Source: Vibrio pectenicida
Lineage (GTDB): Bacteria; Pseudomonadota; Gammaproteobacteria; Enterobacterales; Vibrionaceae
Direction: 5' to 3'
DNA length: 64,000 nt
Assembly (NCBI GenBank): GCA_024347015.1
Contig: AP024889.1
Span: 496,001 to 560,000 of the forward strand
Shown here: piece by piece, positions 59,865 through 61,971 of the stretch
Layout: each line of letters starts with the position of its first letter
Position numbering within the stretch: position 1 is the first letter of the stretch
Made by a program: the position numbers and the translations under genes
The notes under the pieces: generated by a model
What the model saw: the letters and a program-made list of their open reading frames with translations, nothing else
Database searches by the model: none
What the model was told of the DNA's origin: nothing

Positions 59865-60176
59865 ATGCAGAAAAGTCAGTTAGATAAGTGGATTCATGGT
59901 CATCATAAGGATAATTACCAGCCACCAAAGGTATTTGTGATTGGTTGTTCAGACCTGTCCCATTACCTGCTTGCAGTAGAATACAAACACAAATTAGAGC
60001 CGATCAAAGAAAAAGATCAACCAATACATTTTGAGTCTCTAGATTTGGTTAAAGAGGTTTTATTAAAACTGGGCGTTGAAAAGGCTTATTTGCGTCTGCA
60101 CAATACCTATGATGAATGTGGTGCAGGTGATGGTCCATTTTATTATGATATTGAACTATCTTTAACCACTCACTAG
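59865..60176 (+). CDS. DUF6482-like protein
   Basis: 103 aa, soluble, no signal peptide. Blocks: [28 protein letters not shown] and [16 protein letters not shown] recall these from a small conserved family of Vibrio and Shewanella (DUF6482), function unknown. ATG has a GGAGG site. Its TAG stop lies in the CTAG (60173-60176) that also supplies the stop of the convergent mutH. Confidence 0.65.
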
Positions 60177-60838
60177 CAGAAGTTTTGAGCCAAAATGCGT
60201 GAGGTAAATTGTGTGCGAAGATAAAAACCGCGAGGTAATGTCATGATAGGTTTGCCAGCAGATCCATAAGCTTCAGTTAAAATGCGACTATGCGCAGCTT
60301 TTGGTCTTAACTGTAGTACTTGACCGTGGTGAGCTGTGATTTCTTCAACATGACCTAGGACGATCATTTCCATCAATTCTTCCCAGTCTGCTTTAAGTTG
60401 TGAGTTTTCTTCTCTGCTTGGAGACCAGATCAAGGGGGTTCCAACTCGGCGTTGAGCTAAAGGTATCTCTCGTTCTCCCTCGACTGGGATCCAGAGTACT
60501 CGAGAAAGCTTGTTACGCACATGACTGGTTTCCCAGGTCAGTCCTTGTGTACCAATTAATGGAGCCACACAGACGAATGTGGTTTCTAGAGGTTTTCCTA
60601 CGTAACTGATGGGGATAGTTTTTAATTCGATGCCTAAATGTGCGAAGTCTTGTTGAGCTTTACTCCCAGAATGGGCGCCTAGATGCCATTCTAGAAGTTG
60701 TCCAACCCAACCTTTATTCCTTTTTAGGTTTGGTGGGACAGTGACGTTAGCCTCTTTAGCTAATTCTCTAAAGCTGATACCAGCAATATTAATCGCTCGA
60801 TTGAGCAGTTCTTGTTCTGATTTTGGTTCAGTCTTCAT
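60173..60838 (-). CDS. mutH: DNA mismatch repair endonuclease MutH
   Basis: Nicks the unmethylated GATC strand in methyl-directed mismatch repair, activated by MutL. Family blocks: [32 protein letters not shown] with catalytic Asp/Glu/Lys (D-x...E-x-K), [10 protein letters not shown], and [11 protein letters not shown]. 221 aa. I chose ATG 60838 by family length; the frame is open 62 more codons into the DnaA-box region, without family sequence. Its presence implies Dam methylation. Confidence 0.93.
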
Positions 60839-61452
60839 GAAAATGTCTTGGATCTTAAATACAAGCTCTAGTGTATCGGATTTATGCCCAAAGTGTCGAA
60901 GCTTGATCCTACTTGATAAAAGATCTGGATAACTATAGTTATCCACAGTATACAGCATTAGAGGAGAGTCATAGCTAAGAATGTATGAATAAACAGTGGT
61001 TTTTCTGGTACTTATAACTTGCACTTTAGGAATTTCCTTTGTTTTACAAGATCCTTATGTGGATAAAATGAACTATGATGGATCTTTAACCGATCTAACT
61101 CCGAGGGTAGGTAGTTAATTTTTATTATCGGTACTAATGACATGATGTTCTTACTAAATTTATGATTTTTAGTATTTTTTTTTTATTCTCTATTTTTATG
61201 TGAAATTCTTCCTCACAATGAAATCTAATTTAGATTGCTTTTTATGGAACTTTTCACATAGTTATGCACAGAAAAGGTGAATAAATGTGGAGTGTGTCTC
61301 ACCGTATTGTGAATAACTACTTGTTTAGACGAAAAGTATTCATAAATTGCTCTTCGTAGCATATTTTATGTGTGAATTATGAGAGTAAGTTTGCTACATC
61401 TGGGTATATGTGGAAAAATCACAGTAATTAAGAATTTATTAGAGGTTGGCCA
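60839..61452. promoter_or_regulatory. DnaA-box cluster, DARS2-like, between mutH and rppH
   Basis: 614-base AT-rich gap. Exact TTATNCACA boxes: 60939-60947 (+), 61058-61066 (-), 61262-61270 (+), 61308-61316 (-). One-mismatch boxes: 60924-60932 (-), 61276-61284 (-), 61371-61379 (-), 61409-61417 (-). The first pair forms part of a 20-bp palindrome at 60926-60945. With eight fixed bases, fewer than one box is expected by chance. In E. coli the DnaA-reactivating sequence DARS2 lies between mutH and ygdP (rppH), so the locus matches. I did not assign IHF or Fis sites. Confidence 0.72.
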
Positions 61453-61971
61453 GTGATAGATGGCGATGGTTACCGATTAAATGTGGGAATAGTAATTTGT
61501 AACAACCATGGTCAGGTCTTCTGGGCTAAACGATACGGACAACATTCATGGCAGTTTCCTCAAGGGGGAATTGATGATGGAGAAACTCCTGAGCAGGCAA
61601 TGTTCAGGGAGTTGTATGAAGAGGTTGGTCTTACTGATAAAGATGTAAAAATCGTAGCAACGAGTCGGCATTGGTTAAGATATAAGCTACCCAAGAGATT
61701 AGTTCGTTGGGATTCAAAGCCTGTCTGTATTGGACAAAAACAGAAATGGTTTCTTCTTCGTCTAGATTGTGATGAATCACAGGTTAACATGCAGCGAGGA
61801 AATGCCCCTGAATTTGATGGTTGGCGCTGGGTAAGTTATTGGTATCCTGTTAGACAAGTGGTGTCTTTTAAGCGTGATGTTTACCGCAGAGCAATGAAAG
61901 AGTTCTCTGCGGTTGCTATGCCATTTAAAGAGCGTAAAGCGAAAGGTAAGCGTAAGAACAGAAGAGGGTAG
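61453..61971 (+). CDS. rppH: RNA pyrophosphohydrolase RppH
   Basis: Nudix enzyme that removes pyrophosphate from 5'-triphosphate mRNA and so starts RNase E decay. The Nudix box [23 protein letters not shown] in parts (GX5EX7REUXEEXGU) is at about residues 38-60. N terminus [15 protein letters not shown]; basic C-terminal tail [14 protein letters not shown]. Starts with GTG 61453 behind GAGG. 172 aa. ptsP follows 2 bases after its stop. Confidence 0.94.

What the first reader, a model, noticed from the sequence alone, without database searches (positions are those of the whole stretch)
60839..61452. DARS2-like DnaA-box cluster between mutH and rppH
Four exact TTATNCACA boxes and four one-mismatch boxes lie in 614 bases, including a head-to-head pair inside a 20-bp palindrome (60926-60945). 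By chance about 0.02-0.05 exact boxes are expected. E. coli carries DARS2, which recharges ADP-DnaA to ATP-DnaA, in exactly the mutH-ygdP(rppH) gap. The box arrangement differs from my memory of the compact E. coli core, with boxes spread over 490 bases, so this may be an expanded Vibrio version linked to control of two chromosomes.
Basis: partly seen in the sequence, partly recalled or inferred. Interest (0 to 1): 0.75.

Follow-up and report, generated by a model that had tools for sequence, protein, structure and literature searches.

The report
Vibrio DARS2, a DnaA-recharging site
The gap between mutH and rppH holds the Vibrio counterpart of DARS2, a DNA site that in E. coli recharges the replication-starting protein DnaA and likely does so here; its box layout matches E. 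coli's rather than being a new expanded type, and following it up turned up a third site with the same three-box core in most Vibrio genomes examined, apparently on the second chromosome, which is predicted to tie that chromosome into the same cycle.

Summary
DARS2 is the right name, but the anatomy was misread. The core is not the 60926-60945 palindrome, whose second box is kept in 2 of 59 Vibrio gaps; it is boxes III/II/I at 61250-61284, spaced as in E. coli to the base. Outer boxes also keep E. coli distances (119, 58, and 192 against 185 bp). So this is an ordinary Vibrio DARS2, a kind already reported for V. cholerae, with a matching core in 224 of 227 genomes (E<=1.1e-9), not an expanded version. 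Two 1-Mb reduced genomes have lost it. A link to two chromosomes may lie elsewhere: the same genome has DARS1 upstream of uvrB and a third DARS-like core on a 1.2-Mb replicon. That third core is in 206 of 223 Vibrio genomes (E<1e-7), on a different contig from DARS2 in 56 of 58 near-complete assemblies, and has a counterpart beside rplT in both reduced genomes. I saw no report of it. Whether it recharges DnaA is untested.

The parts
60176..60838 (-). mutH
   Evidence: NCBIfam NF003458 E 2.9e-112
60924..60947 (.). palindrome with boxes TTATCCAGA (-) and TTATCCACA (+), their TT ends facing each other; the left box is hardly kept elsewhere
   Evidence: left box at >=8/9 in 2 of 59 gaps
60939..60947 (+). 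conserved outer DnaA box TTATCCACA, 119 bp from the box V equivalent, as in E. coli
   Evidence: exact in 58 of 59 Vibrio gaps; spacing
61058..61066 (-). DnaA box V equivalent TTATCCACA (equivalence inferred from position)
   Evidence: exact in 51 of 59, >=8/9 in 54 of 59
61076..61095 (.). conserved block TGATGGATCTTTAACCGATC, at the same offset from box V as E. coli TTGGTTGATCTTTCGCCAACC; probable equivalent of the Fis / low-affinity DnaA region
   Evidence: Fis assignment inferred
61155..61167 (+). candidate IHF site TAAATTTATGATT (8 of 9)
   Evidence: weak on its own
61250..61258 (+). DARS2 core box III CTTTTCACA
   Evidence: >=8/9 in 57 of 59
61262..61270 (+). DARS2 core box II TTATGCACA
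   Evidence: exact in 52 of 59, >=8/9 in 59 of 59
61276..61284 (-). DARS2 core box I TTATTCACC, opposed to II and III
   Evidence: 8/9 in 59 of 59; E. coli has the same 9-mer
61308..61316 (-). downstream box TTATTCACA, core+58 bp, as E. coli TTATAAACA
   Evidence: >=8/9 in 57 of 59
61409..61417 (-). DnaA box TTTTCCACA 36-44 bp before the rppH start codon, overlapping a putative -10; not at that place in E. coli
   Evidence: exact in 54 of 59, >=8/9 in 59 of 59; promoter inferred by eye, not found by the consensus scan
61453..61971 (+). rppH
   Evidence: NCBIfam NF001934 E 1.7e-100

Best explanation
The mutH-rppH gap carries the counterpart of E. coli DARS2, with the same three-box core in the same place and spacing, and it likely recharges inactive ADP-DnaA to ATP-DnaA before each round of replication. 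Shown here: position, core geometry, conserved outer boxes, conservation across the genus, loss in two reduced genomes. Inferred from E. coli work: ADP-DnaA bound at boxes I and II would meet head to head, IHF and Fis bound between the core and box V would bend the DNA and loosen ADP, apo-DnaA would leave and take up ATP; ATP-DnaA building up at box V and the neighbouring weak boxes would shut the site off. The locus appears to be one of three cores with this geometry in the genome: DARS2, DARS1 upstream of uvrB, and a third on the second replicon.
For: Core III(+)-3 bp-II(+)-5 bp-I(-) at 61250-61284 is the best core in the 64-kb window (25 of 27; next 22); none at 23 or more in 40 x 64 kb of Markov sequence. 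MG1655 gap: same spacing, same box I. The same scorer ranks the E. coli DARS1 and DARS2 cores first in their 5-kb regions. Core in 39 of 40 first sampled Vibrio gaps; genus scan 224 of 227 at E<=1.1e-9 (gene neighbours not checked for each). Box-by-box conservation in 59 gaps against a background mean of 0.003. Outer box to V 118-121 bp in 49 of 52 measurable gaps (E. coli 119), V to III 190-195 in 52 of 52 (E. coli 185), 7 of 59 not measurable. PMC8682772, PMC4245941 and PMC5742627 (passages) give the E. coli mechanism; the first lists V. cholerae DARS2.
Against: No binding or exchange assay is known to me for this sequence. IHF and Fis matches are only modestly better than shuffles: IHF >=8/9 in 38 of 59 against 403 of 1180; Fis >=5/6 in 44 of 59 against 467 of 1180. 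Box III departs from the consensus in 49 of 59 and box I in 59 of 59, each mostly by one base. Fis, IHF and DiaA genes were not looked up in this genome.
Confidence: 0.9

Rival explanations
1. The cluster is mainly a DnaA-controlled promoter region for rppH (and mutH): DnaA bound at 61409-61417 would cover the rppH -10 element.
For: TTTTCCACA at 61409 is exact in 54 of 59 and >=8/9 in 59 of 59 gaps and absent at the E. coli position.
Against: It explains one box, not the core geometry or the E. coli-like distances 119, 192 and 58 bp. The promoter was not found by the consensus scan. It may coexist with DARS2.
Confidence: 0.2
2. A DnaA titration or ATP-hydrolysis site of datA type rather than a reactivating site.
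For: Several high-affinity boxes and a candidate IHF site in a non-coding gap.
Against: Position is that of DARS2, while datA lies upstream of yjeV in E. coli (PMC11317965, passage); the opposed II/I pair with III is the DARS core.
Confidence: 0.05
3. Chance cluster in AT-rich DNA.
For: Four of the ten boxes (60882, 60924, 60984, 61371) are kept at >=8/9 in only 0, 2, 14 and 3 of 59 gaps and may be chance.
Against: 0 of 20000 Markov sequences reach four exact boxes; seven boxes hold in at least 54 of 59 gaps at >=8/9.
Confidence: 0.01

Closest known systems
E. coli DARS2 (mutH-ygdP/rppH)
   Same: Gene neighbours, core boxes and spacing, box V, outer box at 119 bp, box at core+58
   Different: V-core 192 against 185 bp; an extra conserved box in front of rppH; E. 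coli boxes at gap positions 62 and 213 have no listed counterpart in the window
V. cholerae DARS2 (PMC8682772 Fig. 8 legend; PMC6090056 citing Fujimitsu 2009)
   Same: Same genus and, by those passages, the same locus; already listed as a DARS2 homologue
   Different: The figure's sequences are not held, so no base-level comparison was made
DARS1 (uvrB)
   Same: Same three-box core; its counterpart is at G000:C1:1008746-1008780 and upstream of uvrB in 30 of 30 Vibrio loci looked at
   Different: Another locus; DARS2-type outer boxes were not searched for there
crtS
   Same: A chromosome-1 site that acts on an initiator; PMC6139311 itself likens it to DARS2 (passage)
   Different: Acts on RctB; RctB sites were not searched for in this gap

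Membership tests
DARS2 | Lies between mutH and rppH | tested here: met
DARS2 | Core of boxes I-III, I opposed to II and III, DARS spacing | tested here: met
DARS2 | DnaA box V upstream of the core | tested here: met
   61058-61066, exact in 51 of 59
DARS2 | IHF sites between box V and core | tested here: inconclusive
   >=8/9 in 38 of 59 against 403 of 1180 shuffles; 27 of 59 best matches at -95 to -97 from the core
DARS2 | Fis sites FBS2-3 beside box V | tested here: inconclusive
   block TGGTGGATCTTT at the E. coli offset, but the Fis consensus score is only modestly above shuffles
DARS2 | Stimulates ADP release from DnaA | not testable with these tools
   needs purified proteins
DARS (third site, G000:C2:970603-970637) | Three-box core with DARS spacing | tested here: met
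   score 24 of 27; conservation centred on the boxes and the II-I spacer
DARS (third site) | Boxes I and II close to consensus | tested here: met
   I 9/9 and II 8/9 in 30 of 30 loci; box III only 7/9 or 8/9
DARS (third site) | ADP release from DnaA | not testable with these tools
   no assay
datA | Located upstream of yjeV | tested here: not met
   gap is mutH-rppH

The most novel reading that the evidence does not exclude
Vibrio run a three-site DARS network that spans both chromosomes. A third DARS core on the second chromosome recharges DnaA when that chromosome is present and duplicated, so chromosome 2 reports back to the chromosome 1 origin: the return leg of the crtS signal that goes from chromosome 1 to chromosome 2. 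It is more durable than DARS2, since two 1-Mb reduced genomes dropped the DARS2 core and kept a core of this kind.
Probability: 0.4. Interest if true: 0.85.

Novelty: new member of a known kind. Interest (0 to 1): 0.5.

Why it matters
It shows that DARS2 in this genus is laid out like E. coli's, so E. coli results should largely carry over. It gives a short list of candidate recharging sites in a two-chromosome genome. The third site makes an open question testable: does chromosome 2 feed information back to chromosome 1 initiation? PMC4585315 mentions a 'speculated DARS3' in E. coli; here is a concrete, conserved candidate in another genus.

Tried and rejected
Head-to-head palindrome as the DARS core: rejected, opposite polarity and second box kept in 2 of 59. 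'Expanded Vibrio DARS2': rejected. Rfam on the gap: no match. Rfam on three third-site loci: one chance-level match, E 0.94. RNA reading of the third site: RNAalifold predicts only the invariant box hairpin, no covariation. An outer stem that I named does show compensatory changes: in the whole named structure 4 pairs with changes on both sides (42 of 500 shuffles reach this), 26 such cells (0 of 500), 7 further pair types (215 of 500), covariation score 0 of 500. Many more distant Vibrio match the model only over about columns 12-57, so I read the outer arms as a clade feature; this is not settled. Perfect box pair at C1:1209730 set aside: box III 4/9, IS3-family transposase ORF within about 2 kb. 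Position of ori2 relative to the third site: I read only the first and last 20 kb of C2 by eye and could not place it. RctB sites in the gap: not searched.

Full report
Observation. The gap between mutH (60176-60838, -) and rppH (61453-61971, +) holds four exact and six one-mismatch TTATNCACA boxes (genes). First-order Markov sequences made from the gap average 0.047 exact boxes and none of 20000 reaches four.

What it is. E. coli MG1655 was fetched by accession. In its 684-bp gap the core is TTCTTCACA, 3 bp, CTATCCACA, 5 bp, opposed TTATTCACC, as the literature says: box I opposed to II and III, same spacing in DARS1 and DARS2 (PMC5742627, passages). The window has CTTTTCACA / TTATGCACA / TTATTCACC at 61250-61284 with exactly this spacing. 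The core scorer gives it 25 of 27, the next best in 64 kb is 22, and 40 x 64 kb of Markov sequence give none at 23 or more. The same scorer ranks the known DARS1 and DARS2 cores first in the E. coli stretches fetched. In E. coli ChIP-seq the DARS2 III/II pair lies under one of the strongest DnaA peaks (PMC11317965, passages with Table 1).

Layout against E. coli. Outer box to box V: 119 bp in both. Box V to core: 192 against 185. Core to the next downstream box: 58 in both. The block after box V (TGATGGATCTTT against TTGGTTGATCTTT) sits at the same offset. So the 490-bp spread is close to the normal DARS2 layout (455 bp in the E. coli papers), not an expansion.

Conservation. Of 60 Vibrio loci examined, 59 held both genes; they are the 29 best-scoring non-self loci plus 31 that I picked lower down its list for diversity; the two reduced genomes are told apart below. 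Gaps are 591-678 bp. Boxes kept (of 59): 60939 exact 58; 61058 exact 51, >=8/9 54; III >=8/9 57; II exact 52, >=8/9 59; I 8/9 in 59; 61308 >=8/9 57; 61409 exact 54, >=8/9 59. Hardly kept at >=8/9: 60882 0, 60924 2, 60984 14, 61371 3. Over 734 other positions the mean is 0.003 and the highest 0.32. A sequence-only model of the core region (R1, built from 40 Vibrio sequences and E. coli) matches 225 of 227 Vibrio genomes at E<=0.01 and 224 at E<=1.1e-9; the misses are G117 (1370 contigs) and G124, and G026 has only E 9e-4. In the order it matches 175 of 295 genomes at E<=1e-3; weak matches there may be DARS1 or chance. R1 matches were not each checked for gene neighbours. IHF and Fis matches are better than shuffles but not decisive.

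Natural deletions. G124 (its contig of 20,070 bases matches Candidatus Photodesmus blepharus) and G026 are about 1 Mb. Both keep mutH next to rppH, but the gap is 171 and 128 bp and has no core.

Other cores in the same genome. A scan of G000 for opposed box pairs at core spacing gives nine sites at <=2 mismatches against four for the reversed-pattern control, and four sites at <=1 mismatch: DARS2; one upstream of uvrB (L099) that I read as DARS1; a perfect pair with a poor box III near an IS3-family transposase ORF; and one on C2, a 1.195-Mb replicon, at 970603-970637 (TTATCCCAA / TTATCCACT / opposed TTATCCACA). A core scoring 23-25 lies upstream of uvrB in 30 of 30 loci looked at (the 30 best of the 60 genomes of 61 with a uvrB match).

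The third site. It lies upstream of a FAD-dependent oxidoreductase gene (PF01266) with matches in 215 of 223 Vibrio genomes. All 30 loci returned by that call carry the core. Model R2, built from these 30, matches 217 of 223 genomes at E<=1e-4; 11 of these (G015, G066, G078, G083, G101, G106, G127, G157, G170, G180, G226) lie between 1e-7 and 1e-4, where some may be DARS1 cross-matches, which leaves 206 of 223 below 1e-7. Six have none (G026, G053, G064, G073, G143, G220). In the order draw of 295 genomes 21 of 21 Vibrio match at E<=2.1e-7, all others at 1.3e-6 or weaker. A shorter model (R3) matches 210 of 217 genomes of the family at E<=1e-4, but outside Vibrio the matches are mostly 1e-5 to 1e-9 (two near 1e-12) and their places were not checked. 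In 58 assemblies of 2-5 contigs that I compared by hand from the listed rows, it is on a different contig from DARS2 in 56 and on the same in 2 (G131, whose contig is 4.07 Mb, and G097); with more than two contigs this does not prove a different replicon. Four of four named Vibrio secondary-replicon records that I read have it (filed as plasmids of 0.6-2.06 Mb; six Vibrio hits in all); two Photobacterium records and one Catenovulum record do not have it near this gene. Two genomes of another genus of the family have a core upstream of a homologous gene (L106, L107; 47% identity for L106). Conservation in 31 picked rows, centred with the scorer, which itself favours boxes: III 0.95, II 0.94, II-I spacer 0.90, I 0.99, III-II spacer 0.68, edges 0.70-0.73, flanks 0.47-0.56. 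An exact pattern read off the alignment hits 99 stretches in the collection of 84,980 species genomes; of the 80 listed, 78 are titled Vibrio, one Aliivibrio (MAG), one Photodesmus. In 90 of the 99 stretches the oxidoreductase follows in the same relative orientation, 88 of them at 170-366 bp (two at 576 and 1579); seven of the other nine lie within 400 bp of a stretch edge, two do not (V. hannami and Photodesmus).

Why a DnaA site and not just a promoter of that gene. In G124 the gene has no match but the core is kept at C32:9254-9292, 101 bp from rplT. All of G026 was scanned in stretches: only two cores score 25 or more, one 91 bp from rplT, as in G124, and one upstream of rsxA. In 13 of 30 Vibrio uvrB loci rsxA lies within reach and, by strand, is the divergent neighbour across the DARS1 region; so the second core looks like DARS1 kept after uvrB was lost (no uvrB match in G026). 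Twenty Markov genomes of the same size give none at 25 or more, 1 at 24 and 22 at 23. That the rplT-side core is the third site moved, not a new one, is inferred. In G026 both cores share a contig, so it says nothing on chromosome 2. rplT is annotated on the secondary replicon of Vibrio sp. HDW18.

Against. Box III of the third site is weak (7/9 or 8/9), no IHF/Fis framework was sought or seen around it, in one clade an outer inverted repeat with compensatory changes surrounds it, 6 to 17 of 223 Vibrio genomes may lack it, and nothing was tested in the laboratory. Regulation of the oxidoreductase remains possible where the gene is present.

Literature. V. cholerae DARS2 is in the Fig. 8 legend of PMC8682772 (passages read); PMC6090056 (passages) says DARS-like sequences are at the same places in V. 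cholerae. 'DARS3' occurs once, as a speculation for E. coli, in PMC4585315 (passage). The searches showed no chromosome-2 DARS in the titles, abstract starts and passages that I saw; I did not read every paper listed, and most subscription papers are not held, so this is not proof of novelty.

Noticed in passing
L101 (G000:C2:970603-970637): Third DARS-like three-box core on the 1.195-Mb replicon, upstream of a FAD-dependent oxidoreductase, conserved across most Vibrio examined, with a counterpart beside rplT in two 1-Mb reduced genomes.
   Followed up: yes
L099 2247-2281 (G000:C1:1008746-1008780): DARS1 counterpart upstream of uvrB; in 13 of 30 Vibrio loci rsxA lies across from uvrB, and in reduced genome G026 a core sits beside rsxA although no uvrB match is left.
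   Followed up: yes
61409-61417: DnaA box TTTTCCACA close to the rppH start in 59 of 59 Vibrio gaps at >=8/9, over a putative -10; a possible DnaA control of RNA pyrophosphohydrolase.
   Followed up: partly
L113-L142 (alignment A2), columns 9-15 and 59-65: Outer inverted repeat around the third site with compensatory changes, apparently in one Vibrio clade only; hairpin, cruciform or protein palindrome unexplained.
   Followed up: partly
G000:C1:1209730-1209752 (L100): Perfect opposed DnaA box pair at core spacing without a good box III, near an IS3-family transposase ORF.
   Followed up: no
G015, G066, G083, G101, G106, G127, G143, G157, G220: Vibrio genomes where the third-site model has only weak or no matches, although several keep the oxidoreductase gene; a natural contrast group.
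   Followed up: no
L080 and L081: Two reduced genomes keep mutH-rppH adjacency but have gaps of only 128 and 171 bp without the DARS2 core.
   Followed up: yes
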